DNA of 63,455 nt from a virus: the IMG/VR virus record IMGVR_UViG_3300043395_004412, positions 1-63,455 of that record. One strand, given 5' to 3'. The position numbers and the translations under genes were made by a program. The notes beneath the pieces were generated by a model. It was not told where the DNA came from, made no database searches, and was given only the letters and a program-made list of their open reading frames with translations. Each line of letters starts with the position of its first letter. The first letter of the stretch is position 1. Below, one piece after another: positions 2,946 through 61,514 of the stretch.

Positions 2946-2959
2946 AACGTTATATTTCG

Positions 2960-5809: not shown

Positions 5810-5814
5810 TTTCA

Positions 5815-9484: not shown

Positions 9485-9488
9485 ATTA

Positions 9489-10487
9489 TTATTGTAATCT
9501 AAAAATAGAATCGTCCCCTGAGCTTGAAGGTCCGCCAGTTCTTCTACCAGACAAAACTTTAATCATTTCATCGAATTTTCCTCCACCAATACCCCACTTA
9601 CCTTCAAATTCATTTTTACAGAATTGAGCTTGGTCGTGCATTCTTGTAATCAATCCTCTATTTGTAATTTGTCTACCTTTAGTTCTTTGGAATTCATTAT
9701 AGAAACGCTCGATTGTTTCTTTACAACCCTTTCTATCCATACTCTCATTTTCCTGTTTGTCTTTTAAAAGTGATGGGTCAGCCTTAGTTGGGTCTAAATA
9801 AACTAATTGATTTGGTGAAAATAATCCTTCAGGTAATCCTGAATAATTTATTTTATATAGCTCAACAGATTGATATTTGTCTTTTTCCACATCTGTTGGG
9901 TTTACAATAATACCATCTTCGTCCCTCAGTTTTTTGACCCATTGATTTCTAATAGCTTCTTTTTCATCCATTGTGCCAGTTGCAGTACCAATTTTTCTAT
10001 ATAGTTTTACGTTCCCTACTGTAACTACCTCCCATATTTGAGGGTTATTTATTTCTCTAGTATCTTGATTAGTTTTTCTTAAATCCTCGAGTGTTGCCCA
10101 TTTGTCCTTTTTATATTGTGCAATTAGGTACTCATTGTTAACTTGGTCTTCAGTTGGTTTACCAAGATTTTCCATTGCTGGACAAGCAATCTGATTTTTG
10201 AAAGCCTGAGTCGACTGTTTAGTCGTGGGGTTGTAAAAATAGTATGTATTATTCGGAAGGAAACGTACGAATTCACCTGGTTTACTTTTACTTGGTTTAC
10301 TAAATACCGCTTGTCCTGATGGTAACATACCAATTTTACCATTTGGAACTGGATAAGTACCAAAACAACCAGCACGGTGCCCCGCATCCAACTTTTCTGT
10401 GTCGGTTACTGTTCCCTCTTTTAATAGAGATTTGTGTTTTTGTAAAATTTCAATTCTTTCGGATTCTTCTACTAAAAATTGTTTCAT
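9489..10487 (-). CDS. tagged hypothetical protein
   Basis: 332 residues starting MKQFLVEESERIEILQKH, a clear EExxRIxILxxH tag with an L-V-E step at residues 5-7. The body is soluble, with strand-rich segments (GKIGMLPSGQAVFSKP, FVRFLPNNTYYFYNP) and scattered Cys. No family recognised. It lies in an operon between two other tagged genes and shares the late-type promoter at 11730. Confidence 0.65.
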   Translation of the reverse strand: MKQFLVEESERIEILQKHKSLLKEGTVTDTEKLDAGHRAGCFGTYPVPNGKIGMLPSGQAVFSKPSKSKPGEFVRFLPNNTYYFYNPTTKQSTQAFKNQIACPAMENLGKPTEDQVNNEYLIAQYKKDKWATLEDLRKTNQDTREINNPQIWEVVTVGNVKLYRKIGTATGTMDEKEAIRNQWVKKLRDEDGIIVNPTDVEKDKYQSVELYKINYSGLPEGLFSPNQLVYLDPTKADPSLLKDKQENESMDRKGCKETIERFYNEFQRTKGRQITNRGLITRMHDQAQFCKNEFEGKWGIGGGKFDEMIKVLSGRRTGGPSSSGDDSIFRLQ

Positions 10488-10497
10488 ATTATAATTT

Positions 10498-11712
10498 TTA
10501 TAATTCTTCGGTTGATGGTTCGAGTCCTGAGTCTTTAACTACTGCAGTCGCACAGATTTTATCAACCTCAGAGTCTCTAAATATTCCATTTAGTTCAGGA
10601 TGTTTTTCGTTCAATTTATTTTCTGTTTTTGGACCAAACTTACCATCTTGTGATAGTCCGCCTAAACATCCTTGTACTTTTGCAATCACATCTGATTTAC
10701 AACCTTTTCTATAAACACCTGAACATGATTGGAATGATGTTCCTGGTCTTGGACTTGGGTCTGGACTTGGGTCTGGACTTGGGTTCGGGTCAATGTCCAC
10801 ATCTACCGAATCTAAATTAATATTTCCTAAATCAGCTTGTTCTCTTACCAATTTTTTTTTTACACTTTCACTAACAGTAACTTTTCTGTTATCAGTACCT
10901 GAACAAACAACTTTCTTACCTGTCCATTTGTGTGTATCACCCTTGTAGAGTCTACCGTCTTGAAGTACGTGGAATTCTTTTAATTGACCTTTTACTTTGA
11001 AAGTTACCTTTACGTATGTATTACCATATTGGTCAGTTTCAACTGAAATTGGTAAAACAAATGAATCCGTAACTTCCAAACATGGGAATTGATTTAACCA
11101 CCATTGTTCATTTGCAGTTTCAGCATTTCTGATTTTAAGGTTACCCTTAACTGATTTTGCTAACAAAATTTCGATTACATTTGTTACTTCACCAATTTCT
11201 GAAGTATTGAGTTCATCTATTAATTCTTCCTCAAACTTTTCTTTACCCATTTTTTCTCTAATCTTACAAAAATCTCCAAAATTTCCGTTGGTTTCAAGCT
11301 CTGTAAGTGCTGCTCTTAAATCAGTCAAACCTGTACCTGCACCTATTCCCATTCCCATAAAAGTCCAATCGAATGATTTTCTGAATAAACCAGCAAGTTT
11401 AGTTTGTTGTTGGGTATCAAGTGTTTCTCTTTTCAATTTCTGAGCATCAGCATCGTTTTTATCACAACCTTTTGCAAGTTCTCTTAATTTTGTTTTAGCA
11501 TCTGTAGTAGTCCATTCAGAAGCAATACTTCCACCTAGTAATGCAGGTATCCCTATCCCAAGACCCCACGCCACTAGAGGAGCAATCTCATTTAATTGTT
11601 GTTTATTCTCTACAACGACTTTATTCTCTGTATAAGTTTTAGAGGAATCATACTCCATCATTAATTTTATTCTTTGGAGTGCCTCTTCGGGACTATATTT
11701 TGGATGTACCAT
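10498..11712 (-). CDS. tagged protein with C-terminal peptidoglycan-binding domain
   Basis: 404 residues. The N-terminus (SPEEALQRIKLMMEYD, then SKTYTEN) is a distinct tag type. A hydrophobic Gly-rich hairpin follows at about 46-65 (APLVAWGLGIGIPALLGG). A Pro-Asp-Ser linker (SPDPSPDPSPRPG, from 12-base DNA repeats near 10750-10790) leads to a PG_binding_1-like domain at about 335-375 (KGCKSDVIAKVQGCLGG, DGKFGPKTENKLN). It may combine membrane and wall contact, as expected of a protein ejected at entry. TATTTAT at 11730-11736 lies 17 bases before the ATG. Confidence 0.75.
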   Translation of the reverse strand: MVHPKYSPEEALQRIKLMMEYDSSKTYTENKVVVENKQQLNEIAPLVAWGLGIGIPALLGGSIASEWTTTDAKTKLRELAKGCDKNDADAQKLKRETLDTQQQTKLAGLFRKSFDWTFMGMGIGAGTGLTDLRAALTELETNGNFGDFCKIREKMGKEKFEEELIDELNTSEIGEVTNVIEILLAKSVKGNLKIRNAETANEQWWLNQFPCLEVTDSFVLPISVETDQYGNTYVKVTFKVKGQLKEFHVLQDGRLYKGDTHKWTGKKVVCSGTDNRKVTVSESVKKKLVREQADLGNINLDSVDVDIDPNPSPDPSPDPSPRPGTSFQSCSGVYRKGCKSDVIAKVQGCLGGLSQDGKFGPKTENKLNEKHPELNGIFRDSEVDKICATAVVKDSGLEPSTEEL

Positions 11713-11744
11713 GATACTGTTTTTTTGTTATAAATATATTGAAA

Positions 11745-11996
11745 TTACCAAATTTGATTTGCAACACCTCTATTCAATCCTGTTTCCCATTTTTCTCCTC
11801 CTTTACCCAACATATTGGCCTTCCCACGTTTGGGACCTCCGTGAACATCTGACCATTTTGGTGGAGCCTTTCCTGTACCACCTGTTGAGCCTCCAGCTGG
11901 GGGTGGGGTTGCTTCTTGTTCTTTCATTTCACCATCACGACCTTTATCTGAATATTTTTGGAAAAAGGATATAAGAAAATCTATGTCTAAAATCAT
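11745..11996 (-). CDS. small Gly/Pro-rich hypothetical protein
   Basis: 83 residues from the ATG at 11996 (MILDIDFLISFFQKYSD). This start is chosen over an ATG 36 bases upstream because TATTTAT at 12001-12007 ends four bases before it. The middle is Pro/Gly/Thr-rich and disordered; the end is basic with GGPKRGKANMLGKGG. Not recognised. Confidence 0.6.
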   Translation of the reverse strand: MILDIDFLISFFQKYSDKGRDGEMKEQEATPPPAGGSTGGTGKAPPKWSDVHGGPKRGKANMLGKGGEKWETGLNRGVANQIW

Positions 11997-12044
11997 ATTA
12001 ATAAATATTTTTGTTTTGGATAAAAAAATCATACTTTTGTTTTT

Positions 12045-12587
12045 ATGAAAAAATACCTTCTATTTCTACTTCCGTTACTTCTGTCTTGTGAAAAATATGT
12101 TACCGAAGTCAGTGACCTGACTCTGAGTGGAAAATATGTTGTTTCCAAAGTTACTTTGATTCAAACATCTCAAGCAACGACAAAGGATACAACATTCTTT
12201 TCAGGTTCTACTTTTATGACCCCATACCTTCCTGACCCTTTCGATTCAATTAAAGTAGATAATTTCTATCTACATTTTGATTATTCAACCATAAGGATGA
12301 TTTGGTATAATAGACACCAAAACGGTCAAAGGGATAGATGGGAATATGGTGAGTCCCCAAATGAAATTATGTTCTGGAGGGTTCCATATAGTTTTGATGC
12401 ATACACCACAGGTAAAATTCAATTCGATTACAAACCCAAGGATAGAAACTCTTACGCAAGAATTACTTTTCAGGTCGATAGTGATTTGTTAGAGACCCTA
12501 CAATTGTCTGGATTGGATTTTGCACCGTACGGTAAAGATGGCCCGCACTATAGACTTATTCTTTCTCTCAATAGAGTTGGACCTTAA
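12045..12587 (+). CDS. exported lipoprotein
   Basis: 180 residues with signal MKKYLLFLLPLLLSC and lipobox LLSC. The mature part is about 165 residues, rich in Tyr, Thr and Asp, with beta-strand character like a lipocalin or small barrel; the family is not recognised. TACTTTTG at 12032-12039 is a host-type -7 element with a TTG 18 bases upstream, so it is probably an early gene. It could act in superinfection exclusion (inference). Confidence 0.75.
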   Translation: MKKYLLFLLPLLLSCEKYVTEVSDLTLSGKYVVSKVTLIQTSQATTKDTTFFSGSTFMTPYLPDPFDSIKVDNFYLHFDYSTIRMIWYNRHQNGQRDRWEYGESPNEIMFWRVPYSFDAYTTGKIQFDYKPKDRNSYARITFQVDSDLLETLQLSGLDFAPYGKDGPHYRLILSLNRVGP

Positions 12588-12883
12588 TAGAATTCTGATT
12601 CAGGTAGAGATTCGGGATGGATTGTATAATATTCGTTCAAGAATGTTATCAGTTCATCCTCATCCAATTCTACTTTTTCTTCATCTGCAAATGAATCGTC
12701 TTCCTCATCCTCAAAAAAGTCAAATGATTCTGTAACTAAATCAAACCCATATTCTTCAACTATTGAATAATCTATTTGGTCTACTCTTATAACCTCATCA
12801 TTGTCTTCTATCGTTCTGAATGAAACTTCCATTATGTTGCTATCGCTATTCATGAAATACGATACTATTTCTTTGATTTCCAT
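12584..12883 (-). CDS. acidic hypothetical protein
   Basis: 99 residues, very acidic, with EDEEDD and VELDEDE runs in the second half and strands in the first (IMEVSFRTIEDNDEVIRV). No membrane segment or known motif. Convergent with the lipoprotein gene, overlapping it by four bases. Confidence 0.6.
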   Translation of the reverse strand: MEIKEIVSYFMNSDSNIMEVSFRTIEDNDEVIRVDQIDYSIVEEYGFDLVTESFDFFEDEEDDSFADEEKVELDEDELITFLNEYYTIHPESLPESEFY

Positions 12884-12962
12884 AAGTAATTTTATATAAC
12901 AAATATTATAAAATATGATAAAAGTCAGGCCAAAATTTTTATTTTATCATTTTTTTTCTCTG

Positions 12963-12969
12963 TATTTAT
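12963..12969 (+). promoter_or_regulatory. late-type TATTTAT element
   Basis: TGTATTTATGG in the gap before the oxygenase-like gene. Here the element lies 27 bases before the ATG, one of the longest leaders in the set. Confidence 0.5.
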
Positions 12970-12996
12970 GGTTAACTTTATTTAAAGATTCAAATT

Positions 12997-13593
12997 ATGA
13001 GATTCAATTCACTTACAATAGACAACTTCTACGCTAATCCATTAGAAGTTAGAGAATTTGCACTTAAACAAGAATTCAAGGTAAGAGGAAATTATCCTGG
13101 TCAAAGAACCAAATCATTCTTAAATGACCCCTTGAAAAAGAAGTTGAGAGACATATTATATCCTTTTGCTGGTGAGATTACTTATTGGGGAAGTGATGAC
13201 CCCGAAAACAATTATACTGGTTCATTCCAATATACTGTTGCTGAAGACAGGTCATGGATTCATGCCGATTCCACCACTGATTGGGCTGCGGTTTGTTATT
13301 TAACTCCAGATGCCCCAATATCATCAGGTACAGGAATTTTTAGACATAAGTCTACAGGTTGGATGCATTATGATTACAAAAGAGAAAACGAACCAGGTTA
13401 CAAAGAATCTGCCCCTCCAGGACATGAGTGTAGAGATTACACCAAATGGGAAATGGTAGATAGAATTGGAAATGTGTTCAACAGACTCATAATGTATAGA
13501 GCCGATAACTATCACGTATCATTAGATTATTTCGGAAGAGATATTAACGATGGAAGATTATTCCAAGTTTTCTTCTTCAACACAGAACGTTAA
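12997..13593 (+). CDS. 2OG-Fe(II) oxygenase-like protein (DUF6445 type)
   Basis: 198 residues. RSWIHADSTTDWAAVCYL (about 86-103) supplies a His-x-Asp pair, GTGIFRHKSTG follows, and NRLIMYRADNYHVSLDYFG (about 162-180) supplies the distal His. DGRLFQVFFF ends the double-stranded beta-helix. This layout matches a small family related to prolyl hydroxylases. Substrate unknown. It faces a second oxygenase gene across a convergent junction, overlapping the 13590 gene by four bases. Confidence 0.65.
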   Translation: MRFNSLTIDNFYANPLEVREFALKQEFKVRGNYPGQRTKSFLNDPLKKKLRDILYPFAGEITYWGSDDPENNYTGSFQYTVAEDRSWIHADSTTDWAAVCYLTPDAPISSGTGIFRHKSTGWMHYDYKRENEPGYKESAPPGHECRDYTKWEMVDRIGNVFNRLIMYRADNYHVSLDYFGRDINDGRLFQVFFFNTER

Positions 13594-14009
13594 TCAACAA
13601 AAAAGTTTTCCAAGAGTTTTGGATTCATTTGTGCAACAATATTGATAATTCCCTCTGCACACAAACACATACCTGGGTGGTGTGTTGAACTCACCAATCT
13701 CATATGATTGAATCCCAAAATAATAGTAAAAAAATGGTCTTTTTGATAAACATTCCTTGCAACAATGTTGGGGTCTAAGCTGATTAAAAAATCTACCGCT
13801 TTTTCTGCTGGTGTTTCAAACACAGGTATACCGATTCTTTCTACGACATAACGAAATGGATGAAAACCTATTTCATCTGTTTGACCTTTGATAGATTGGA
13901 TTTGTTGGTTTGGTAATGGTTTGGATGGCGTAAAATGCCAAAGCCAATATTCGTTTTCTAACCCAACTTTTCTATAGTCCTGAACTGATATATATTCGTG
14001 TCTTATCAT
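13590..14009 (-). CDS. hypothetical protein paired with an oxygenase
   Basis: 139 residues, soluble, with many His and Cys near the end (HHPGMCLCAEGI). Not recognised. Its start overlaps the stop of the 2OG oxygenase gene by four bases (ATGA), so the two are translationally coupled and may work together. Confidence 0.65.
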   Translation of the reverse strand: MIRHEYISVQDYRKVGLENEYWLWHFTPSKPLPNQQIQSIKGQTDEIGFHPFRYVVERIGIPVFETPAEKAVDFLISLDPNIVARNVYQKDHFFTIILGFNHMRLVSSTHHPGMCLCAEGIINIVAQMNPKLLENFFVD

Positions 14010-14605
14010 CTTAAATTAGCACCACATAACCAAGTAACCAAGGACCTTCTTAGACCTGAAGATAATGGGGTCACTCTGTGTAGAACAAACGATGGGAAAA
14101 AACAAATTAACCCTTTTTGCTTTGGGACGTTGAGGATGCTACCTCCAGTATTCATCTGTAGTTCACCACCCTCGTATTCGGATGCATCAGACAATTGAAG
14201 AACAACTGAAAGTTTTCTATTTGAAATACCTACACCCAAATCAGCGTGCCAATCATAGTGACCACCATTTCCATAATAAGATGTATATTGAAGGTCGTCT
14301 TGATAATCCCAAATATCAAAATTCCACATCTCGGAGTTTGCCTTAATTGCTAAATCCGCAATTCTATTGAATAACCATTCAGAATCTGAGAAATTTGGTA
14401 TCCATGAAATATCACTGACTCTATAGTCCGAAACTTTGTGGTCTTTTTCGTCTCCCACAGTTGTGGCTTTTATTTTTGGTTGAGATTCTCCTATCTGAAT
14501 AATTTTCTCTAATTCTTGGTCGGTGAATACTTCGGTAAAATAATAATAGTTAAAATGATTTACACTATTTCTCTGAAGGGATACAAACTTGTTATTACTT
14601 GGCAT
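14006..14605 (-). CDS. 2OG-Fe(II) dioxygenase, prolyl-hydroxylase-like
   Basis: 199 residues. The iron triad is visible: HYDWHADLGVG (about residues 116-126, His-x-Asp) and the distal His in FVLHRVTPL (about 175-183), with Arg in RRSLVTWLCG for 2-oxoglutarate. YEGGELQM is the typical strand before the distal His. It resembles PKHD-type hydroxylases such as PiuC. Phage enzymes of this class hydroxylate proteins or bases; the target is unknown. Confidence 0.8.
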   Translation of the reverse strand: MPSNNKFVSLQRNSVNHFNYYYFTEVFTDQELEKIIQIGESQPKIKATTVGDEKDHKVSDYRVSDISWIPNFSDSEWLFNRIADLAIKANSEMWNFDIWDYQDDLQYTSYYGNGGHYDWHADLGVGISNRKLSVVLQLSDASEYEGGELQMNTGGSILNVPKQKGLICFFPSFVLHRVTPLSSGLRRSLVTWLCGANLR

Positions 14606-14657
14606 ATCGATATTTTATACTTCAAGTTTAATCTGTTCTTGTTATATTTTCAATAGT

Positions 14658-15599
14658 ATGAGTGAAAAAAAATTGGTTTTTGACGTAGTATTCCTTAAGG
14701 GGGATAACAGAGTTTTTGAACTCAGAATCAAAGAAACTTTTGAGTTTATAGATTATCTTTTAATTTTTGGGGATGATAAAAGTTTAAAAGAGATATTGAA
14801 TTATTTACCAGAAAATAGCCCCAATATTTCGACTTTTCATATTGATGGGGAATTTGTTACTGAAAATATTTCAGAACAAATCTTAAAATTTTTGGAAAGA
14901 AACTATAAAACATTCGAAGACTTAGTTTTATTTTCTTTTTCCAATGAAATACCAAATCTGAAAGATTTGACTGCAGAAGAAATTAAATCTAAAGAAGTAA
15001 TCGTTTTTAAGAATGATGTTTATCAGTATCACTCAAACTTGAAACAAAAGTTTGGAGAAGCAGGAACAACACTCACAAATTTTAGCCACCTTTTAAAAAA
15101 TAAAAAAAACTTTTTAGTCGAGGTTTTAAATTCATTAAGTAATAGATTATATAGAGATACCGATATTGTTAACGGAAAAAAATTTTTATTTTCAGAATTG
15201 AGTAGTCATACTACCTATAAATGTCCTTATTCAAACAAAACTATTGAGTTCAAAAAACCTATTGAACCAAGAAAATTCATTTTCTTTTTTGGTGATGTTT
15301 TAGATAATGATTTAGGGGATTTCAATTTTGACGTTAAATTTACAAATCAATTTCCAGAATCAATAGATATTGGTTTTGGTAGAGAAATTCAAAAAATCCA
15401 AATTTACCAACCAAATAATAAAATTTACGGAAATAACCAAACTGAATTTGAATTCAAATATAAAACTTTCGAGGTTTTGAGAATACTTTCTTTTTTCAAT
15501 TGCCAAGATGAAGACAATATTGTTATTTACCAACCCTCTTTTGAAGTACAAAGTTATAAGTTCAGTCAAATAAAAAACCCCTCATACGGAGGGGTTTAA
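14658..15599 (+). CDS. possible glycosyltransferase (GT17-like) or unknown
   Basis: 313 residues from ATG at 14658 (MSEKKLVFDVVFLKGD). The upstream in-frame ATG at 14589 would overlap the divergent oxygenase start. The opening, with FELRIKETFEFIDYLLIFG, resembles the first strand-helix unit of GT17-type transferases, but I see no firm catalytic motif. CPYSNKTIEF near the middle is notable. Its last codons form one arm of the terminator at 15572. Confidence 0.5.
   Translation: MSEKKLVFDVVFLKGDNRVFELRIKETFEFIDYLLIFGDDKSLKEILNYLPENSPNISTFHIDGEFVTENISEQILKFLERNYKTFEDLVLFSFSNEIPNLKDLTAEEIKSKEVIVFKNDVYQYHSNLKQKFGEAGTTLTNFSHLLKNKKNFLVEVLNSLSNRLYRDTDIVNGKKFLFSELSSHTTYKCPYSNKTIEFKKPIEPRKFIFFFGDVLDNDLGDFNFDVKFTNQFPESIDIGFGREIQKIQIYQPNNKIYGNNQTEFEFKYKTFEVLRILSFFNCQDEDNIVIYQPSFEVQSYKFSQIKNPSYGGV
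15572..15597 (-). terminator. terminator for the 15601-16761 gene
   Basis: AAACCCCTC/GAGGGGTTT hairpin with a T run on the minus strand. It overlaps the 3' coding end of the plus-strand gene and may also slow that transcript. Confidence 0.75.
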
Positions 15600-15600
15600 T

Positions 15601-16761
15601 CTATTTTAAAACTTTCATTCTCAACATCATCTCGGTTATTTTGTTTTTTTGTTTTTCGAAAGATTCTTTCAAATCTTCATCAATTTCATCCCAATCACCT
15701 GTGTGAGCTTTAATTTCTTCCCACGTAGAATCTTCAGGATTAAATTTTTCCAAATCCAAATCTAACTCATTTGGAGCCAAATCTTTCTCCCAATAAACAT
15801 CATCTTCAGCAGTATCATCACTTGATGAGCCACCCCAACTTGAAGTTTGATAAGGTCCTGCACTTCCTGGTCCTTTCGAATCAAAATCAAACGCTGGTTC
15901 CATATCACCATAAACTCCTTGTACTCCTGAGATATCTGTTTCTTCTAATTCATCTGACCACGCAGATTCCATAGTTTCGTAATCACAATCTAAACATTCA
16001 TCTTCTTCCATTTCTCCCTCAGGGTAGACATCCATGGGTCCGTTGCTAACAAAATCGTAGGCTGGTTCAACATTACTGATGTCCATATCAGGAGCATTTC
16101 CACCACCAGTATAGCCTTGTTCATACATTTCACTTGAATCGATTTCCAAGTCATCTGTCCCCACAACTTCATCATCTTCGTTGTCTGGGTCCTCAAAGTT
16201 ATCAACATAATCATCTTCTTCTTGTTCATTTTTTATTCCCTTCATGTGGTGCATTTTTTCAAATGTACCGTATTTGTTACCTCCCCCTTGAACGTAGTCG
16301 AATTCATCGTTACCCAAGTCTTCAACATTATAAATGTCGTCTAAATGACCTACTTCATCCAATTCTTCCATTTTATATCCACACTCGGTACACTCACCTT
16401 CGTTCATTAATCCTCCACATTCGGAGCACATCATCTCTTCTTTTTCTTCCATAGCACCCACCTCACCTTTCCATCCACACTCGGTACACTCTCCTTCCAT
16501 CATCATAGAACCACATTCGTCACAAACTTCTTTTTGTTCTTTTTGTTCGTTGATTCCAACATTTGTGTATGGTTTAACAACACCTTTGTTGTTTATAACT
16601 GCACCGACTTTATCTTTTGCAAAATCTTGTACGTATAGTGGTTGTTGGTTAGACACATTAGCTTGTAGTGTTCTATACCCATCATATAGTGTTCTGTGTT
16701 GTGCCAAAATATCGTTTTTCTCGTCTTGGCTCAAACTACTTGCGGCGAAATATGCGTTCAT
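15601..16761 (-). CDS. acidic tagged protein with two zinc ribbons
   Basis: 386 residues. LSQDEKNDILAQHRTLYDGY at residues 9-28 is the DEKxxILxxH tag type. At about 76-130 lie two CxxC...CxxC ribbons (CDECGSMMMEGECTECG and CSECGGLMNEGECTECG). The remainder is extremely acidic and repetitive, with recurrent PAFDF/PAYDF and GPMDV/GPGSAG segments. No enzyme motif. Such proteins can be scaffold or core components, or DNA mimics. TATTTAT at 16777-16783 lies 15 bases before the ATG. Confidence 0.7.
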   Translation of the reverse strand: MNAYFAASSLSQDEKNDILAQHRTLYDGYRTLQANVSNQQPLYVQDFAKDKVGAVINNKGVVKPYTNVGINEQKEQKEVCDECGSMMMEGECTECGWKGEVGAMEEKEEMMCSECGGLMNEGECTECGYKMEELDEVGHLDDIYNVEDLGNDEFDYVQGGGNKYGTFEKMHHMKGIKNEQEEDDYVDNFEDPDNEDDEVVGTDDLEIDSSEMYEQGYTGGGNAPDMDISNVEPAYDFVSNGPMDVYPEGEMEEDECLDCDYETMESAWSDELEETDISGVQGVYGDMEPAFDFDSKGPGSAGPYQTSSWGGSSSDDTAEDDVYWEKDLAPNELDLDLEKFNPEDSTWEEIKAHTGDWDEIDEDLKESFEKQKNKITEMMLRMKVLK

Positions 16762-26031: not shown

Positions 26032-27138
26032 CTATAAATTTGGTTTGAGTACTGTTAATACTTCAGGGAATTCTTTATCGAGAACAGCTTCGTTTTTTCC
26101 TTCATAAGGAATATTTTGAAGAACGTATCTTATTGCATTTAAACCTGATACTCTCTTATCCTCAGCATCAATAATAACCCATGGATGATTCAGTGTAGAT
26201 GTTTTATCAAATAATTTTTCTTTAAATTCAGTAAATCTGTCCCACAAATCTTGCATTTTGGAATCGTTTGGTGAATATTTCCAATATTTTAACGGAGATT
26301 GTTGTCTCATTTTGAATCTTCTTGCTTGCGTGTCTTTGTCTATTGAAAACCACAACTTGAAAAGATAGTCACCTTCCTTTACTAAATCACTTTCAAAATC
26401 CTCAACGTTTTCCATAAAGTCTTCATACTCTTCAATTGAGCCATAACCCATTACGGGTTCAATGAGACCTCTATTATACCAACTTCTATCAAAAAGATTA
26501 ATCATTCCAGGTCTTATTTGTTTACGATATCTCCCCCACCAATCTTTCCTATCTTCAGGTGAAGGCACTCCTAAGGCAATCACATTATAATATCTTGGAT
26601 TCAAGTTTTCGACAAATTTTTTGATTGTTGAGCCTTTTCCTGCAGAGTCTCTACCTTCAAAAACAATTATCACTGTTTTATTCGTTTTTTTTAACCATTC
26701 TTGTAGTTTGAGTAATTCCACTTGTAACTCGTAAAGTTCTTTTCTAAAAACTTTTTTGGGTATTATCGATGGCTCTTCAACTTCAAACTCATAATCTTCA
26801 CTTTCTGGTTCAGTGCCATAACCTGACCTTTCTCTGTATTTTAGAGACGTAATAATTTTACCCAAATATTCTTCCACATTTTTTTTCTTGTCCCCCTTTT
26901 TCAAAAGTACTTTTCTCAAACCCCTACCCATCATATCAAAATCAATAATTTGAGTTGTTGAAAAATGTGTTATGTCCATTAACATTTTTTCAATCTTTGG
27001 AGAGTACAGTTTAAGGAATTCCAAAGTTTCAACAAATTTTTTCAAATTCGTATTCATACTTGGGCCTTCAACCCCATTTTCTTCTTTCAATATACCCATT
27101 ACAGAACGGATACGACTTAATTCATTTAGGACGGACAT
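26032..27138 (-). CDS. ppk2: polyphosphate kinase 2 with N-terminal tag
   Basis: 368 residues. Walker A EGRDSAGKGST at 161-171, Walker B region FDRSWYNRG at 216-224, and the lid with RRFKMRQQSPLKYWKY are hallmarks of PPK2. These enzymes move phosphate between polyphosphate and nucleotides, often making ATP or GTP from ADP or GDP. Residues 1-20 (LNELSRIRSVMGILKEE) look like the tags on neighbouring genes, with L-N-E and L-K-E steps, and about 130 residues precede the kinase domain, longer than usual. TATTTAT at 27153-27159 lies 14 bases before the ATG. An enzyme making nucleotides from host polyphosphate would serve a phage well. Confidence 0.9.
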   Translation of the reverse strand: MSVLNELSRIRSVMGILKEENGVEGPSMNTNLKKFVETLEFLKLYSPKIEKMLMDITHFSTTQIIDFDMMGRGLRKVLLKKGDKKKNVEEYLGKIITSLKYRERSGYGTEPESEDYEFEVEEPSIIPKKVFRKELYELQVELLKLQEWLKKTNKTVIIVFEGRDSAGKGSTIKKFVENLNPRYYNVIALGVPSPEDRKDWWGRYRKQIRPGMINLFDRSWYNRGLIEPVMGYGSIEEYEDFMENVEDFESDLVKEGDYLFKLWFSIDKDTQARRFKMRQQSPLKYWKYSPNDSKMQDLWDRFTEFKEKLFDKTSTLNHPWVIIDAEDKRVSGLNAIRYVLQNIPYEGKNEAVLDKEFPEVLTVLKPNL

Positions 27139-27152: not shown

Positions 27153-27187
27153 ATAAATATTATTTTAATCGGTATTTCTATATTTAT
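27153..27187. promoter_or_regulatory. divergent late-type TATTTAT elements
   Basis: ATAAATA at 27153-27159 faces the ppk2 gene and TATTTAT at 27181-27187 faces the lysis genes starting at 27224, linking the two units in time. Confidence 0.55.
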
Positions 27188-32884: not shown

Positions 32885-34078
32885 TTAGTTCTGTTTTTTT
32901 GTTTTTCTGTAGAACTCGTCATTAAAACTACCATGCGTATTATTTGAGATAAACTCAAAATTATATTTTTTTAATTCTGTTTTGTTTTTCGGATATATTG
33001 CCAAAAAAGGTATACCCAGTTTTCTTATGAAGGCTTTTTCTGCGTGGTCTTTATTTTTTTTAACTTGTATTGCATATGTTGTTCCGTTTATTGTTGCAGT
33101 CAAATCAATTCCGAAAACCATATCTACTATATTACCCCACGTTGAGAAATTATTTATGTTTTGTACGTTTTCTGGCAAATTATTTAGAAGCTCCTTAAAC
33201 TTTTCCTCAACTAAATCCCCTTCCTCGGTTGTTTTTAAAATTCTAGAAAAAACAGATTTCATTTTTATACTTTCTAAGTCTTTAAAAGATTCTAACAGGT
33301 CTAATTCAGCCAAACTCAAAGTTTTAATTTTGATTTGTTTTCTAGATTCAGTTTTCTGTAATAAACCCATCATTTCAGTATTCAAAATTTGACTTACGGG
33401 TCTTTGTTTGAAATATTCGTGAATTACCTCTGAGTCCGATTTTCCTGAGATAAGATTCTCAAGATACTTTTCTTCTATCATTGAACCCCAATTAACATAA
33501 TTGGTGTCTATTTTATTCAACAGACTCCAAATAACCTTATCTCCTTCGGTTTCCAAAATACCCCAGTAATTTTTATTTTCACATTTGAAAATCATTTCAT
33601 CTATTTTTTCTTCGAAGGTTGCTTTTGATTTGTCTGCCCAAGTAATAATACCAGCGGTTGAGTCAAATTCGTCAATTTTTTCTAAATCATCGATATTTGT
33701 CTCATACCATTTGTCGGATGGGGACCCAATTTTGAATTTCGAACCCAAAATTAAAGATTCTAATAAGAATTTCTTATTTGATTTTATTAAATTGAGATAA
33801 GTTTCGATACCTTCTTTCTTGATTTCTGTTTGTAGTGACCTTGTTGAGTTAATTCTTGAAGAAATATTTTTTTCTTTTTTTGTTTTCTCTGACTTTTCAA
33901 TTTCTTGGAAAAGTTTCTCAGCATTTTCTAGCTCTGTGTCTGATATTGGTTCTTTTCTCCAAACTTTTACCCATAAATCTTTTATTGATTTATCATCACC
34001 ATAATAATTCAAGATTTTTTTGAAAAGTTCTTCTTGTGATAGTTCTTCCTTAAGTATTTTTTTTATGAGTTCTTTCAT
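32885..34078 (-). CDS. tagged PD-(D/E)XK-like nuclease
   Basis: 397 residues. MKELIKKILKEELSQEEL is a tag-like helix with an L-K-E step. The C-terminal part (about 290-375) has the PD-(D/E)XK layout: GDLVEEKFKEL (helix Glu), MVFGIDLTATI (Asp) and YAIQVKKNKD (Q-x-K in place of E-x-K). The middle 200 residues are helical and unknown. TATTTAT at 34085-34091, six bases before the ATG. If delivered with phage DNA it could cut host or rival DNA. Confidence 0.7.
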   Translation of the reverse strand: MKELIKKILKEELSQEELFKKILNYYGDDKSIKDLWVKVWRKEPISDTELENAEKLFQEIEKSEKTKKEKNISSRINSTRSLQTEIKKEGIETYLNLIKSNKKFLLESLILGSKFKIGSPSDKWYETNIDDLEKIDEFDSTAGIITWADKSKATFEEKIDEMIFKCENKNYWGILETEGDKVIWSLLNKIDTNYVNWGSMIEEKYLENLISGKSDSEVIHEYFKQRPVSQILNTEMMGLLQKTESRKQIKIKTLSLAELDLLESFKDLESIKMKSVFSRILKTTEEGDLVEEKFKELLNNLPENVQNINNFSTWGNIVDMVFGIDLTATINGTTYAIQVKKNKDHAEKAFIRKLGIPFLAIYPKNKTELKKYNFEFISNNTHGSFNDEFYRKTKKQN

Positions 34079-34116: not shown

Positions 34117-34980
34117 CTATTTACCTGAATAATCGCCCAACAAAGTTATTGGTTGACTGTTTTTAAGTGATTCGAGTATTCCTTCTTCAATTTTACTCGA
34201 TGGAAACTTGTAATGTACTCTAATAAGTTTTATTCCATTGTTAAAACAATACTCATTTTTTATCTTATCGTTTTCCTGTATTTCATCGTATTTTCTTGCG
34301 TATTTGGTCTTGGGGTTAAAATGCTGCTCTCCGTCATACTCTATTACAGTATTAATATCAGGAATGTAAAAATCAAATCTCAATGGTCTACAATACTTTC
34401 CCTCAACTTTGTTATTACAATCTTCAAAAATTTTTTCACGGTTATCACATTTTCTAGAACCCATGCATTTAGGGTCGATTAAACCTTTTTCTACTAAAAT
34501 TTTCGCAATTAATTCTTCACCAGCGGATATTTTTTCAGGTACAAAATGAGAGGTTATTGATTGGTAAAAATCTTTACCTCTTTTGTTAGCTGCGTTAAAG
34601 TAATTAAAAGAATTTTTTTTGAATTGTGCCGCGGTTTTATATTTTTTCGCCTCTTGTTCGAGTTCATCAGGTGAATATTTGATTTTTGATTCAATATAGT
34701 CAAACCTGCATCCATTTCCTTTTAAATGATGAAATGGATAAATTTCAAAATATTCGTGACCTGTTTTTTTCAACCAATCTTCTCTGTGTTTGGGACATAT
34801 AATTTTGACTTTGTTTTTACTGTCCTTATAGTCAGTCAATGAATAATCATATTTCGGATTACCATCATCATCAACATGTATTTTTTTTGACGCATCAACA
34901 AATTCTTGAGTGGTTTTTTTATTTTGTCCACCCGCTTCCATCAATCTTGTATACTGAGATTCTGTTATGATAATTTTCAT
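34117..34980 (-). CDS. tagged Vsr-like endonuclease with DUF723-type and SHM-repeat domains
   Basis: 287 residues. Tag IIITESQYTRLMEAGG (residues 3-18). Residues 57-93 (KVKIICPKH, HHLKGNGC) match the zinc-binding module found beside homing nucleases. Residues 104-147 (DELEQEAKKYKTAAQF, RGKDFYQSITSHF) are one copy of the repeat present four times at 61554. Residues 200-221 (RFDFYIPDIN, IEYDGEQHF) are the PD-(D/E)XK core of Vsr-like enzymes. A homing-type nuclease carrying the virion-type tag is unusual. TATTTAT at 34986-34992, five bases upstream. Confidence 0.8.
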   Translation of the reverse strand: MKIIITESQYTRLMEAGGQNKKTTQEFVDASKKIHVDDDGNPKYDYSLTDYKDSKNKVKIICPKHREDWLKKTGHEYFEIYPFHHLKGNGCRFDYIESKIKYSPDELEQEAKKYKTAAQFKKNSFNYFNAANKRGKDFYQSITSHFVPEKISAGEELIAKILVEKGLIDPKCMGSRKCDNREKIFEDCNNKVEGKYCRPLRFDFYIPDINTVIEYDGEQHFNPKTKYARKYDEIQENDKIKNEYCFNNGIKLIRVHYKFPSSKIEEGILESLKNSQPITLLGDYSGK

Positions 34981-36327: not shown

Positions 36328-37599
36328 TTAGTTAAAAGTCAAAGACCAATTGAGTAATTCGTGATTATCGTTAGCTCCTCCCGTTGCTGAACCAAATCCC
36401 ATGTAGTAAGAACCTGTATCAAATGAAAAGCTAGTAAATGTTTTATTTGCCGACACAGGTTTTGAATTGGATGTATTCCAATAAAGAGCAAAAGTTTGTG
36501 CTGAATGATTGTAATCACCCCAGAAATACATCGTTTGTCTCCAAAGTCCTGATGAAACCGAGTTAGCCGACTGAAGCACGTTATTTTTATACCAATTGTA
36601 ACTGTTATTGGTATAGGTTAAAAATGTGATTGCATTAATGGTGCCAACAGCCTGTATCAAACCGACACCTCCACCACCAGTTCCTGTCGAGTTATTAGTT
36701 GATGTCCACTGAACGCAATATCCATCTGCACCAGTTCCCCCACCGATAATGGTTTCCCATTGAGTAGAAAAATTTCTATCATATCTAATTGCAGATGTTC
36801 TATAAACATTACCCACCTGGTTATTTCCTGCCGTAGTCAGATAAAGAATATTTGAACTAACCGCAGCATTACCTAAAAGTGTAAGTCCTGCGGTGGATGA
36901 GAAATTAGAATAACTGAATCCTTGTGCGTTTGGAGTTCCCGATGGGGTGTTAGTTGGTGTTGGGGTTTTTGTTGGTGTTTGAGTCTGAGTGTTTGTTGGA
37001 GTAGGAGTGTTTGTTGGAGTAGGAGTTTTTGTTTGTGTAGGTGTAGCCGTAAGTGTAGTTGTTGTAGTTGGTGTAATTGTTGGAGTTAAAGTTTGGGTAG
37101 GTGTAGGCGTAGATGTATTAGTTACAGTTTGTGTAGGTGTAGCCGTAAGTGTAGTTGTTGTAGTTGGGGTGAGTGTTTGCGTTACCGATGGGGTCGGTGT
37201 GTTTGTTGGTGTTTCGGTTTGCGTTATTGTAGGTGTGGGTGTTGGTGTAATTGGGGTAAATGTTGTGGAATAACCATTGGTGTTTAACCAGTTGTATGCA
37301 TCCAACCCATCTGAAAAATTTTGTCCTGAAATTGCATTTACTAAATCAATAAATTCACTTGTGGAGAAACCATTTGTCCTAAAAAATCCCAAATAAGCCG
37401 ATGAACCAACAGGATTTGGTTGCGCTCCTGAAGATACAGGTTGTGCAATTACATAACCCAAACTATCATCTGGACCATTCCAAAATTGTGGTGAGTCGGT
37501 AAAACCTGAAATGGGAGTACCAATTGCGAAATCGCCAGATTGAGTTGTTCCTGATATTGGAACTAAGCTTGGATTATATGCGTAAGGAATTGCCATCAT
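36328..37599 (-). CDS. tail fibre/adhesin with Thr-Pro linker
   Basis: 423 residues. N-terminal shared module (about 1-118), then roughly 100 residues of TPT/TQT repeats, then a C-terminal beta-sandwich domain (about 230-423) that differs from both paralogues ([40 protein letters not shown]). The plan, constant base, flexible stalk and changing tip, suits receptor binding. Its start codon sits next to the stop of the upstream paralogue. Confidence 0.75.
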
Positions 37600-38918
37600 T
37601 ATAGACCGTATTTTGACTTTGTATTATTATAGTTTTGTAAAACTTGAGCTCCCGACAGTCCAACGTTGTAAATTTGGCAAGCGCCTAGTCTGTATGTACA
37701 TATTGTTGTAGTTGTGGTCATGTCTGTTGATGTAGGGTAACCTAAATTGAAATACATCGGTAATGAACCACCAGCATTGTAAGGTGTATCTCTTGAATAG
37801 GTTGAACTTCCTACACTACTTCCATTTACATATCCAGTTAAAGTACCATTATATGTCCAACCAACATAATACCAGTTGTTAAGAGCATAAGTTCCTGATG
37901 TTATGGGTGCCGTGTTGATTGTATACGGCCAAACACCAAATAAAAATCTATTACTTGAATCTCTTTGAATTTGAGCGTCATACCAACCTCCATCAGGGGT
38001 TAAGTTACCTTGTTCGGAATATATTATACCATTCGATGTTGGGTAAATCCATAAGAACATAGATTGATTTGTTCCTGTATTAGCGGGGGACAAATAAGGG
38101 TTGATATTGGCCGTATAGATATATTCGAACGTGCCTCCATCAATTGTAAGATAATTTGGAGAACCACTTGTATAAACTATCGTTCCCGTCAAAGTTCCAT
38201 TGATGTTTCCTTTAAGGTCAGTAATAACTGAGCCTGAACCGCTATATGAACTTGAATTTTGTATATCCCAATTCATAATCAAATTGGTCTGAATCAAAGC
38301 TGTTGTTGGTGAAGGTGTTACTGTTGGCGTTGGTGTAGTTGTTTTGGTTGGAGTTTGAGTTACTGTTGGCGTTGGTGTAGTTGTTTTGGTTGGAGTTTGA
38401 GTTACTGTTGGCGTTGGTGTAGTTGTTTTGGTTGGAGTTTGAGTTACTGTTGGCGTTTGAGTAGGAGTAGCGGTAAGAGTGGTTGTTGTTGTTGGCGTTG
38501 GTGTAGTTGTTGTCGTTGGGGTATTTGTAGGTGTTTCGGTTTGTGTTATTGTAGGTGTGGGTGTTGGTGTAATGGGGGTAAATGTTGTGGAATAACCGTT
38601 GCTGTTTAACCAATTATATGCATCCAATCCATCTGAAAAATTTTGTCCCGAAATTGAGTTAACCAAATCTATGAACTCAGAAACCAAAAATCCGTTTGTC
38701 CTAAAAAATCCCAAATAAGCAGATGAGCCAACAGGATTTGGTTGGTTTCCCGCTGATATAGGTTGTGCAATTACATAACCCAAACTATCATCTGGACCGT
38801 TCCAAAATTGTGGTGAATTCGTAAAACCTGAGATTGGACTACCTATCGCAAAGTCTCCCGATTGGGTTGTACCCGATATCGGAATTAAACTTGGGTTGTA
38901 TGCGTAAGGAATTGCCAT
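37599..38918 (-). CDS. tail fibre/adhesin with Thr-Pro linker and LamG-like tip
   Basis: 439 residues from ATG at 38918 ([15 protein letters not shown]), chosen because TATTTAT at 38925-38931 ends six bases before it; the longer frame would translate through the promoter. Shared N-terminal module, a stalk with a 14-residue unit in tandem copies ([14 protein letters not shown]), and a concanavalin-like tip ([36 protein letters not shown]). First gene of the fibre set 35331-38918. Confidence 0.8.
38317..38455 (-). repeat. 42-base tandem repeat in fibre stalk
   Basis: Copies beginning at 38317, 38359 and 38401, plus a partial at 38443, are near-identical and in frame, each encoding 14 residues. 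Copy number can change by slippage without breaking the gene. Confidence 0.85.
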
Positions 38919-38946
38919 TTTTTTATAAATATCTATTCTATTTTCA

Positions 38947-39507
38947 TCAACATTGACCCCAATTGATGACTTTGGTTCCAACTACTTGAATGAAAGTTGC
39001 TCCATCCGTGATAGTGAATTTAGCACCTACAGGGGGGATTGAAAATTGTCTATTCCCGTAAACATTATCTCCAGGTCTTAATTGATGAAATGGTTTTGGT
39101 GCGTAAATGGTAACATTACTCGGGGTCCCATAGTCAATAGACTCACATACGTCTTGATACCAATTTCCTGTTATTAAATTTTCTATGAAAACAGGTGTAG
39201 GTGTAAAGGTTGGAGTTGGGGTATAGGTCGCAGTTGGAGTTGGTGTGTGAACCGTTGGTGTTACAGTCATTGTTGGTGTAACCGATGGGGTCAGAGTTGC
39301 TGTCGGAGTCGCGGATGGGCATGGACCCATAATTTGAATATTCAGAGGAGAACTATATTCTTCCTGTAATAAATTTTCAGCACAAACATATGCTCTATCC
39401 AATGGGTTCAAAGGGGATACACTTATAATTCCTGTACATCCCGTCCAAACGTAATATCCTTCTTCAACTGTGTTATAATTGGTTATTTCGTAGTAATTAC
39501 ACGCCAT
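38947..39507 (-). CDS. virion-surface-type protein with Thr-Pro stalk
   Basis: 186 residues. A Cys-containing N-terminal domain (MACNYYEITNYNTVEEGYYV), a TPT stalk of about 35 residues, and a small C-terminal beta domain (NVYGNRQFSIPPVGAKF). It does not share the N-terminal module of the following fibre genes. TATTTAT at 39512-39518 ends four bases before the ATG. Probably a fibre accessory or short fibre. Confidence 0.65.
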   Translation of the reverse strand: MACNYYEITNYNTVEEGYYVWTGCTGIISVSPLNPLDRAYVCAENLLQEEYSSPLNIQIMGPCPSATPTATLTPSVTPTMTVTPTVHTPTPTATYTPTPTFTPTPVFIENLITGNWYQDVCESIDYGTPSNVTIYAPKPFHQLRPGDNVYGNRQFSIPPVGAKFTITDGATFIQVVGTKVINWGQC

Positions 39508-51724: not shown

Positions 51725-52591
51725 TTAAATTTCTATTCTTATTTTATTATCAGGGAATCCCAATTTTGAAAAATATGACTTAACTTTATCTCTAAGAGCA
51801 CTTCTACTCTGATACGAGGGGTAATTTTTGAAAACAAATTTCATTTCTGCACCGTTCGTGTTTGGTTCAAACCTAATACTTTTTAAATCTCTAGATTCGG
51901 GAAAACTACGAATTTCTTTTTTTATAACTTTATTTAGAACGTCTTTAACCCACGACTCGAGACCTACGAGTTTAGGTTCTTTTACATCTAACTTCAACTC
52001 GCCATGAGCTGGATTACCTATTTCTAATCCCAAATAATTTTTTACAAAATCGTGGATTTTTCTTTCCAAATTATGTGTGTTAATGTGCTTAGCGTTGGGA
52101 GACAATAACATCGTCGCAAATGGAACATCAACGAACACTTTAACGAATTTTGGGTCATCCTCCACAAATCTTACACTTGCATATTCGGGTAATTCTAATT
52201 GCTCAATTATCTCAGGTAATATTCTACTATATTTTTCAGTAAATTTTTCTTCGGAATATAAAGTAGGTAATTTATAACCACCCCTACTTACAATCGTCTT
52301 TACAATTCTATCAATATCCCACTTACTAATTTCATAATCATTATAATCGTCCATGTTACGATAATCAGCACCAGTCATGTCTATCAGGAATGGTTTGGAA
52401 TATTTTTTTATTAAAAATCCAAAAGGATATGACCAAAATTTTTCAGGTGTGTTTTTTCTAATCCAATCCATGTAGATTTGGACGAAGGCTGCCATATAAT
52501 CAAGCTCATCGTATTCAAGCTTTGCTTGTTCTACGATGTTCTTGATTACTGAAATTAGTTCGGATTCTTTTAAAAATATCTTGGACGCCAT
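51725..52591 (-). CDS. tagged hypothetical protein
   Basis: 288 residues. KIFLKESELISVIKNIVEQ (4-22) is the LTESDLxxIVxxVIxEQ tag type with an L-K-E step and a second I-V-E step. The body has many strands with repeated layouts (SVRFVEDDPKFVKVFVDV, SIRFEPNTNGAEMKFVF), possibly two related halves. TATTTAT at 52597-52603, five bases upstream. Confidence 0.65.
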   Translation of the reverse strand: MASKIFLKESELISVIKNIVEQAKLEYDELDYMAAFVQIYMDWIRKNTPEKFWSYPFGFLIKKYSKPFLIDMTGADYRNMDDYNDYEISKWDIDRIVKTIVSRGGYKLPTLYSEEKFTEKYSRILPEIIEQLELPEYASVRFVEDDPKFVKVFVDVPFATMLLSPNAKHINTHNLERKIHDFVKNYLGLEIGNPAHGELKLDVKEPKLVGLESWVKDVLNKVIKKEIRSFPESRDLKSIRFEPNTNGAEMKFVFKNYPSYQSRSALRDKVKSYFSKLGFPDNKIRIEI

Positions 52592-55064: not shown

Positions 55065-55679
55065 TTAAAATTTTAAATTGAATATTGAACCAAATCCCGT
55101 TTCTTTTTCTGAATTACTTTCCTCATTATCATCATCCTCGGGTTGAACAGTCCCAACATTAACTTTATTCAGATTCAAGTTACCTCCACATTTGATTGTT
55201 CCATCATCATTTATAAATTCTCTGATGTTGTGACCTGTCTCGACTCCAATGTGTAAATGGTCATAAGAACTTCCAGGAAAATCCATAACGTATCCCAATA
55301 ATTGACCACACTCCACTTTATCTCCTTTTTTCACCTGACCGTCTTGTAAATGAGTGTAATACACGTCAGGAAGATTTCCATCACTTTTAACAGTGAAACC
55401 CAAACCAAATAATTTTTTTCCATTTTTTTTGATAACCTTTGGTCCATAATCGTTGTATGTGATAACTGTCCCTGGTGCAACAGCATAAACTGGGTCACCA
55501 ATCTCGGCTTTAATATCCCAAGCGTTGTTACTTGCCCATCCACTTTGTCCTTTATGGGCACCGTCTCTTGGAATTGTTATATCATTATCACCCATTATTC
55601 TATCTGATGCGTTGGGGGCTTCATTTATCCCCGACTTAATCAACCTTAGTAGTTGTGACTCTGTTAAAATGTACTTCAT
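55065..55679 (-). CDS. tagged M23 (LytM-like) peptidase
   Basis: 204 residues. Tag MKYILTESQLLRLIKSG (1-17) with an L-T-E step. The domain from about 45 to 155 is M23: NNAWDIKAEIGDPVYAVAPG, YYTHLQDGQV and DHLHIGVE. The first zinc His of the usual HxxxD is Asn here (NNAWD), so activity may be lost or altered. M23 enzymes cut peptidoglycan cross-links. A Glu/Asn-rich tail ends the protein. Confidence 0.8.
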   Translation of the reverse strand: MKYILTESQLLRLIKSGINEAPNASDRIMGDNDITIPRDGAHKGQSGWASNNAWDIKAEIGDPVYAVAPGTVITYNDYGPKVIKKNGKKLFGLGFTVKSDGNLPDVYYTHLQDGQVKKGDKVECGQLLGYVMDFPGSSYDHLHIGVETGHNIREFINDDGTIKCGGNLNLNKVNVGTVQPEDDDNEESNSEKETGFGSIFNLKF

Positions 55680-57396: not shown

Positions 57397-57912
57397 TTAT
57401 TCGGTTTTTTTTGTTTTTATTCTATTACCCAAAACCAAAAGTAACAAACCAACAACAAATGATATTTGATTATCTAATCCAACTTTGGATAATTCAGGTA
57501 GAACCGAATTTATTAAATAAGATATTGGTATATTCAAAAAAACTAAATTAACAACTCCAAGAGATGCCAATGACGCGTAAACTCCATTCATAATCTTATC
57601 TTTTGTACTCAATCCATCATCTTCTTCGGTCATTTCTAAATTCATATTCATTGAATCGTAATCCACTAAATCATCTGCTAATGATATTGCAGTCATAGGG
57701 TCTGTTTCTGAATCAATCCCGATTGAGATAAGTCCATTTTTCAAATTAATTAATTCTTTTGCTGAAGCACCTGCAAGGGCATTATCAACTAACCTATTTA
57801 ACTTTGGCGAATTTATAATTTGAGAAACAAGTTCTATTTGTTTTTGTTCAACAATAACTTTTTTTACTATTTTTGATAAATCTGACTCAGTTAATCTAAC
57901 AATTTTTTTCAT
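57397..57912 (-). CDS. tagged two-span membrane protein
   Basis: 171 residues. KIVRLTESDLSKIVKKVIVE (3-22) is the strongest LTESDL tag, with L-T-E and I-V-E steps. Two membrane spans near the end (VYASLASLGVVNLVFLNIPI; FVVGLLLLVLG) and a basic tail. TATTTAT at 57926-57932, 13 bases upstream. Confidence 0.7.
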   Translation of the reverse strand: MKKIVRLTESDLSKIVKKVIVEQKQIELVSQIINSPKLNRLVDNALAGASAKELINLKNGLISIGIDSETDPMTAISLADDLVDYDSMNMNLEMTEEDDGLSTKDKIMNGVYASLASLGVVNLVFLNIPISYLINSVLPELSKVGLDNQISFVVGLLLLVLGNRIKTKKTE

Positions 57913-61025: not shown

Positions 61026-61514
61026 TCAAAAAGAATAAGTCGGGATTTTAATCTTCTCAACTCCACGTTCTTCTTTCATAAATCTGATGTAATCGTCAAG
61101 TAAAGATTGTACCTCATCAAGAACACCAGCTTCTTCAGCAACGGCAAAGAGATTAAAATTACGATTAATATCGTTATGAATTTCTAAGTAATTGTTGTAA
61201 AGGTTAAAAGCGAATTTACCAGTTCTGAATATCTCTTTAATTTCGGGATTTTTAATCATAATCATGCTAACATCTGATTGTCTATCAATATATCCCTGAA
61301 ACTCGGTTTTCCCTCTTTCTCCCGTCACACACCATTTTGTGTCGGAACCATATTTACAAGAGGCGGTATAGGTCAATGGAACAACTTGCAAAAAATTCTC
61401 CGTATCAGATATAACAATCCTTTCATCTTTGGAAATCTTATACTTGGTCTCATTGATTACTTGTCTAACCAATCCAATCAATTCCGACTCGGTTAATCTG
61501 ATAACTTTTCTCAT
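61026..61514 (-). CDS. tagged protein with KYGxxTxWC domain
   Basis: 162 residues from ATG at 61514: MRKVIRLTESELIGLVRQV, an LTESEL tag with L-T-E and later I-N-E steps. Residues about 38-105 hold the domain shared with 22435: FLQVVPLTYTASCKYG, DTKWCVTG, FAFNLYNNYLEIH. So the domain occurs once with and once without a classic tag. TATTTAT at 61519-61525, four bases upstream. Confidence 0.7.
   Translation of the reverse strand: MRKVIRLTESELIGLVRQVINETKYKISKDERIVISDTENFLQVVPLTYTASCKYGSDTKWCVTGERGKTEFQGYIDRQSDVSMIMIKNPEIKEIFRTGKFAFNLYNNYLEIHNDINRNFNLFAVAEEAGVLDEVQSLLDDYIRFMKEERGVEKIKIPTYSF

What the first reader, a model, noticed from the sequence alone, without database searches (positions are those of the whole stretch)
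26032..27138. Phage polyphosphate kinase 2 with a packaging-like tag
Full PPK2 motifs (EGRDSAGKGST, FDRSWYNRG, basic lid) follow a 130-residue N-terminal region that opens with a tag-like helix. PPK2 can make ATP or GTP from polyphosphate. If carried in the virion it could supply nucleotide triphosphates at once on entry, or drain host polyphosphate used in stress responses. I do not know of a described virion-carried PPK2.
Basis: partly seen in the sequence, partly recalled or inferred. Interest (0 to 1): 0.75.

Follow-up and report, generated by a model that had tools for sequence, protein, structure and literature searches.

The report
Phage polyphosphate kinase with capsid-targeting tag
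A large lake-water phage and over a hundred relatives encode an intact polyphosphate-using kinase (it makes ATP or GTP from polyphosphate), and its front end looks like the address label such phages use to load proteins into their heads, so the enzyme is probably carried in the particle and injected into the bacterium, though nobody has yet looked in a virion.

Summary
The gene is real. It lies at 27138..26032 on the MINUS strand: a 368-aa PPK2 with an intact catalytic site, class-I-like. It is conserved full length in 121 viral contigs. The contigs I searched carry T4-like head genes, including a gp21-type prohead protease. The N-terminus is a short helix ending in psi-x-E (MSVLNELSRIRSVMGILKE|E), then a disordered linker, a phage-only four-helix domain and an acidic linker. 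Six observations support a capsid-targeting propeptide. The tag recurs on unrelated proteins of the same phage (6 genes against 0.04 expected). The psi-x-E site is kept in 45 of 46 distinct tags. The tag is under purifying selection. The gene follows a promoter-like motif shared with head and tail genes. In the 634-735 kb Mahaphages, the same enzyme clade carries a different tag, the one that dominates there ([YF]xxF[IVL]NE), which nearly copies T4's MKTYQEFIAE. Other enzymes shared by both lineages show the same swap; thymidylate synthase, DnaJ and ClpP lack tags in both. Packaging is likely but unproven. Bulk NTP supply on entry is doubtful: a few hundred copies at 3-8 per second yield only thousands of NTP per second. 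Virus-encoded ppk2 is already reported; a tagged, probably virion-carried one appears new.

The parts
26032..27138 (-). PPK2 gene, 368 aa, ATG start at 27138
   Evidence: relatives in 121 viral contigs
27153..27160 (-). Promoter-like octamer ATATTTAT, 15-22 nt upstream of the ATG
   Evidence: motif 25-29x enriched before genes; present before PPK2 in 46 of 50 distinct loci
27082..27138 (-). Predicted capsid-targeting propeptide, residues 1-19 MSVLNELSRIRSVMGILKE; predicted cleavage after E19 (L-K-E)
26830..27051 (-). Four-helix N-terminal domain, residues 30-103, phage-specific
   Evidence: AlphaFold pLDDT about 87-93; no relative confirmed in genomes of 84,980 prokaryote species; no PDB fold match
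26758..26829 (-). Acidic disordered linker, residues 104-127 (RSGYGTEPESEDYEFEVEEPSIIP)
26089..26757 (-). PPK2 kinase domain, residues 128-350
26632..26655 (-). Walker A GRDSAGKG (residues 162-169)
26470..26493 (-). Walker B/DRSWYNR (residues 216-223) with class I signature Asn222
   Evidence: class rule from PMC8776046
25411..26028 (-). Downstream gene, 205 aa, short tag MRNLRQIIKE|A and a C-terminal phrog_7595 domain; follows PPK2 in several relatives
32885..34078 (-). Other protein with short tag MKELIKKILKE|E, promoter motif at -13
34117..34980 (-). Other tagged protein MKIIITESQYTRLME, motif at -12
51725..52591 (-). Other tagged protein MASKIFLKESELISVIKNIVE|Q, motif at -12
55065..55679 (-). 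Tagged metallo-endopeptidase-like protein MKYILTESQLLRLIKSGINE|A
57397..57912 (-). Other tagged protein MKKIVRLTESDLSKIVKKVIVE|Q, motif at -20
61026..61514 (-). Other tagged protein MRKVIRLTESELIGLVRQVINE|T, motif at -11

Best explanation
The gene encodes a class-I-type polyphosphate kinase 2 that a T4-like phage of Bacteroidota loads into its head. Proposed steps: (1) it is transcribed with the structural genes from a late-type promoter [inferred from the shared motif]; (2) residues 1-19 act as a capsid-targeting propeptide that brings the protein into the prohead core [inferred]; (3) the gp21-type prohead protease cuts after E19 (psi-x-E) and leaves the four-helix domain plus kinase inside the head [inferred]; (4) the enzyme enters the cell with the DNA [inferred]; (5) there it moves phosphate between polyphosphate and ADP/GDP, most likely making NTP locally or trimming host polyphosphate rather than powering the whole cell [activity inferred from intact residues]. 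Shown here: gene, catalytic residues, fold, phage-specific N-domain, tag recurrence, tag selection, psi-x-E conservation, promoter motif, T4-like protease and capsid genes in relatives, and the lineage-matched tag swap.
For: PPK2 domain E 2.3e-68; Foldseek best hit F. tularensis class I PPK2, E 1.6e-18; class I Asn222. Relatives carry gp21 protease PF03420 (10 of 11 contigs) and gp23 PF07068 (8 of 11). Their capsid propeptide ends HLINE|ASST, like T4 FLTE|AEIG. Tag class P: 6 genes vs 0.04 expected; class T: 17 vs 0.07; internal-Met controls 0/1217. psi-x-E after the tag core in 45 of 46 distinct PPK2s, background 26%. Tag dN/dS 0.15. Promoter-like motif before PPK2 in 46 of 50 loci; before 15 of 20 tagged vs 87 of 373 untagged genes, p 3e-6; before sheath, tube, portal and protease but not primase, SbcC/D or sigma. 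Mahaphage PPK2s, same clade (SH-aLRT 99), carry that lineage's own tag (39 and 26 genes vs 4.8 and 4.5 expected; classes P and T absent there), close to T4 MKTYQEFIAE|A. HAD-like, DHH and two further ortholog pairs show the same swap; ThyA, DnaJ, ClpP untagged in both. T4 CTS function is experimental (PMC9026906).
Against: I found no virion proteomics and no enzyme assay for any of these phages. The class P tag resembles no experimentally proven propeptide in sequence; the link to T4 runs through the Mahaphage tags and the psi-x-E rule. The tag evolves faster than the kinase (dN/dS 0.15 vs 0.03). The major capsid and terminase genes lack the motif directly upstream (possibly read from upstream genes). 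TIGR03707 score 265 is below its equivalog cut-off of 302. Twelve capsid-bearing fragments contain no PPK2, so universality is not shown.
Confidence: 0.68

Rival explanations
1. Ordinary cytosolic auxiliary metabolic enzyme, made late in infection and never packaged: it regenerates ATP/GTP from host polyphosphate while host metabolism fails. The N-terminal helix is only part of the protein.
For: PPK2 is an energy enzyme; viral ppk2 genes are reported as AMGs and are transcribed (PMC13188868); virion copies alone would yield little NTP.
Against: Does not explain recurrence of the tag on unrelated proteins, the kept psi-x-E, or the lineage-matched tag swap. Thymidylate synthase of the same phages has no tag.
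Confidence: 0.2
2. The tags target proteins somewhere other than the head (a replication compartment, the membrane, or a regulated degradation route), and psi-x-E serves another protease.
For: No virion data; tags on many unknown proteins; several tag classes in one phage.
Against: psi-x-E matches the T4 gp21 sites and the phage's own capsid propeptide; Mahaphage tags nearly copy the T4 capsid-targeting sequence; tagged genes share the promoter motif of structural genes.
Confidence: 0.1
3. The N-terminal similarity is chance or a mis-called start; translation begins at Met28.
For: A Met near position 28 exists in the window and in 59 of 80 sequences.
Against: That Met is not universal, the upstream start is; the promoter-like motif sits 11-29 nt before the upstream start; the tag codons are under purifying selection.
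Confidence: 0.02

Closest known systems
Bacterial class I PPK2 (Francisella tularensis 5LLB/4YEG; Sinorhizobium meliloti SMc02148)
   Same: Kinase domain, Walker motifs, lid residues, class I Asn; about 45% identity over 126-353 to the Francisella enzyme
   Different: Phage enzymes add tag, four-helix domain and acidic linker; they form their own clade, nearest to a set made mostly of Bacteroidota PPK2s
T4 internal proteins IPII/IPIII and Alt with capsid targeting sequence (MKTYQEFIAE)
   Same: Short N-terminal tag ending in psi-x-E, shared by unrelated proteins, in phages with gp21 protease and gp23 capsid
   Different: Class P tag is longer (about 15-22 aa) with another core (ExxRIKxVMG); virion presence not shown; cargo is a metabolic enzyme
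Moraphages (PMC12619734)
   Same: Freshwater, T4-like genes incl. prohead protease, 200-307 kb, mostly predicted Bacteroidota hosts
   Different: PPK2 not mentioned in the sections read; assignment of these contigs to moraphages not tested
Mahaphages LR756502, LR745206, LR756501 (PMC7162821, PMC9723777)
   Same: Homologous PPK2 with a tagged N-terminus; predicted Bacteroidetes hosts
   Different: Other tag ([YF]xxF[IVL]NE) and other promoter-like motif (AATATATA)
Virus-encoded ppk1/ppk2 AMGs in reservoir sediments (PMC13188868)
   Same: PPK2 gene on viral contigs, transcribed
   Different: Discussed as an AMG for polyphosphate accumulation; no packaging tag noted in the passages read

Membership tests
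PPK2 family | PPK2 domain above curated Pfam cut-off | tested here: met
   230.7 bits vs 22.3
PPK2 family | Walker A GxxxxGK and DRSW motif intact | tested here: met
   GRDSAGKG 162-169, FDRSWYNR 216-223, conserved in 26 sequences
PPK2 class I | Asn after Walker B | tested here: met
   Asn222
PPK2 equivalog TIGR03707 | score above equivalog cut-off | tested here: not met
   265.5 vs 301.8: family member, but not filed as this equivalog
PPK2 class I | polyP-dependent ADP/GDP phosphorylation | not testable with these tools
   needs an enzyme assay
T4-type capsid targeting sequence | short N-terminal segment ending in psi-x-E | tested here: met
   45 of 46 distinct tags
T4-type capsid targeting sequence | same segment on non-homologous proteins of one phage | tested here: met
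   6 genes vs 0.04 expected
T4-type capsid targeting sequence | gp21-type protease and cleavable gp23 in same phage | tested here: met
   in relatives, not in the window itself; cleavage itself inferred from HLINE|A
T4-type capsid targeting sequence | sequence similarity to proven T4 CTS | tested here: inconclusive
   strong by eye for Mahaphage tags, only the psi-x-E rule for class P
T4-type capsid targeting sequence | protein found inside virion, trimmed | not testable with these tools
   no proteomics held
Moraphages | clade in MCP/TerL/PolB trees | not tested
   reference sequences not in the collections

The most novel reading that the evidence does not exclude
Two lineages of very large phages each fitted the same polyphosphate kinase with their own capsid-targeting tag, so that an energy or polyphosphate enzyme is delivered with the genome: a virion-carried, polyphosphate-acting 'first minute' effector, one of dozens of tagged proteins injected by these phages.
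Probability: 0.6. Interest if true: 0.8.

Novelty: new variant of a known kind. Interest (0 to 1): 0.62.

Why it matters
If true, it adds an energy/polyphosphate enzyme to the short list of proteins that phages inject, and it gives a sequence rule for reading which of the many unknown genes in large Bacteroidota phages are packaged. The tag swap makes the rule testable: the same enzymes carry lineage-specific tags, and a cultured Flavobacterium phage (immuto) has the same kind of tags and head genes. It also raises an open question: what can a few hundred slow kinases do at entry?

Tried and rejected
Strict tag regex found only PPK2; it was too narrow and was relaxed. A tag-only tblastn in phages found nothing, as the queries are too short. 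A search for the N-domain in prokaryote genomes confirmed no relative, and there was no fold match. A weak phrog_25522 match at aa 61-125 (E 0.006) was not pursued. Conserved PPK2 synteny with Mahaphages was considered and rejected: the gene after PPK2 in LR756502 is not the window's downstream gene. Prevalence by capsid-bearing contigs was uninformative because they are fragments. Pfam gave functions for few other tagged proteins. I considered that PPK2 supplies bulk ATP on entry and think it unlikely on copy number times turnover.

Full report
WHAT IS THERE. The stretch 26032-27138 holds one ORF on the minus strand (start 27138), 368 aa; the + strand is full of stops. The window is a 63-kb IMG/VR virus record with no head structural genes noticed. 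PPK2 (PF03976) matches aa 128-349, E 2.3e-68. The closest solved enzymes are bacterial PPK2s. Walker A GRDSAGKG, DRSWYNR and the lid residues are conserved in 26 relatives. The class I signature Asn is present, and Foldseek ranks F. tularensis class I PPK2 first. The TIGR03707 equivalog cut-off is missed (265 vs 302), so I call it a class-I-type PPK2 and not that equivalog.

HOW WIDESPREAD. 121 IMG/VR stretches encode relatives, matched over nearly the full length in those kept. Contigs reach 321 kb. Of 11 contigs searched, 10 have a gp21-type prohead protease and 8 a gp23 capsid protein. The description fits moraphages (freshwater, T4-like, mostly Bacteroidota hosts; PMC12619734), but membership was not tested. 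PPK2 also occurs in Mahaphages of 634-735 kb. A kinase-domain tree puts all these phage enzymes in one clade (SH-aLRT 99), inside a wider group (97) with nine bacterial sequences, mostly Bacteroidota. This is consistent with one acquisition.

THE N-TERMINUS. It has a helix at 3-13, disorder around 15-29, a four-helix domain at 30-103 (pLDDT about 87-93), an acidic linker to 127, then the kinase. The four-helix domain was confirmed in no genome of 84,980 prokaryote species at the sensitivity used and has no PDB fold match. The bacterial relatives found align only from about residue 67-137 onward, most from 108-137.

IS THE TAG REAL. In the 321-kb relative G001 the PPK2-type tag (E-x-x-RIK-x-VMG) opens 6 genes against 0.04 expected from shuffles and 0 of 1,217 internal Met positions. 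A second class (LTESDLxxIVxxVIxE and similar) opens 17 against 0.07. A seventh protein with the PPK2-type tag was seen. The window itself has 10 genes of the second class. Across PPK2s, 45 of 46 distinct tags have psi-x-E within ten residues of the core, although the residues and spacing vary; the background is 26%. These sequences are related, so this is not a probability. Tag dN/dS is 0.15, so it is translated and constrained. The alternative start near Met28 is missing in many relatives.

LINK TO THE HEAD. T4 gp21 removes short N-terminal propeptides from internal proteins; the first 10 residues of IPIII suffice for targeting (PMC9026906). The T4 record gives MKTYQEFIAE|A for two proteins and FLTE|AEIG for the gp23 propeptide end. 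In G001 the capsid propeptide ends HLINE|ASST and the protease starts MKNLRILE|A. The genome thus contains the enzyme that would cut psi-x-E.

THE TAG SWAP. Mahaphage PPK2s start MINNFIKFINE|E, YNFHKFINE|E and MISNYDNFMNE|S. In LR756502 and LR756501 this pattern opens 39 and 26 genes against 4.8 and 4.5 expected in the 260 kb read from each. The G001 tag classes are absent there, and the Mahaphage pattern is not enriched in G001. Other shared proteins also carry their lineage's tag in both: a HAD-like protein, a DHH-family protein, and two more. Thymidylate synthase, DnaJ and ClpP have no tag in either. Tagging is therefore a kept property of certain proteins while the tag's letters follow the phage. 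I regard this as the strongest evidence.

EXPRESSION. [GA]TATTTAT is 25-29 times enriched upstream of G001 genes. It precedes sheath, tube, portal and protease, but not primase, SbcC/D or a sigma factor. Tagged genes have it more often (15 of 20 vs 87 of 373, p 3e-6). It precedes PPK2 at -11 to -29 in 46 of 50 distinct loci; some misses are start or contig-edge artefacts. In the window it is at 27153-27160. I read it as a late promoter; I have no expression data.

MECHANISM AND LIMITS. Best reading: made late, guided into the prohead core, trimmed after E19, injected, then active on polyphosphate. With kcat 3-8 per second and T4-like copy numbers (about 360), one virion would make about 1,000-3,000 NTP per second. 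That is too little for the whole cell, but possibly relevant locally, for GTP, or to trim polyphosphate over minutes. What the enzyme achieves is the weakest part of the account. Nothing here shows it in a virion.

NOVELTY. Viral ppk2 as an AMG is reported. I found no report of a packaged PPK2 or of these tags (open-access papers only). A cultured Flavobacterium phage, immuto, shows similar tags and head genes and offers a test system.

Noticed in passing
window 8804-16761 and 32885-62228 (minus strand mostly): About 20 proteins open with tag-like helices of several classes (LTESDL, ITESQY, SEEEKNRIL, short MKDLIKKILLE); most have no recognised domain and look like further packaged candidates.
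   Followed up: partly
L101 574-1470 (G001 209574-210470): 298-aa protein with the PPK2-type tag followed by a P-loop-like stretch (VVLLDGTSSAGKS); no Pfam match.
   Followed up: partly
L103 8156-10312 and L118 11808-14084: DHH-family protein (PF01368 just below cut-off in the Mahaphage copy) with lineage-specific tags in both phage groups.
   Followed up: partly
L092 11837-12667, L119 13187-14269, L138 17854-18744: HAD-like protein (YYAFDWDDN) shared by both lineages, each copy with its own lineage's tag.
   Followed up: partly
G001, LR756502, LR756501 upstream regions: Dominant promoter-like motifs differ by lineage: [GA]TATTTAT in the window's group, AATATATA in Mahaphages.
   Followed up: partly
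NC_055915 (L305 1526-38932): Cultured Flavobacterium phage immuto has tags such as MKKSQLRQIIKEALD and MENFDLKKFLVENKLTTNSKILKEN plus gp21 and gp23 with psi-x-E sites.
   Followed up: partly
window 4139-7407: Two adjacent Nol/NodU-like carbamoyltransferases.
   Followed up: no
window 36328-39507: Genes rich in TPT repeats, tail-fibre-like, with near-duplicate N-termini.
   Followed up: no
KR093630 (L110 2668-3774): Moraxella phage Mcat6 carries an unannotated, untagged 368-aa PPK2.
   Followed up: no
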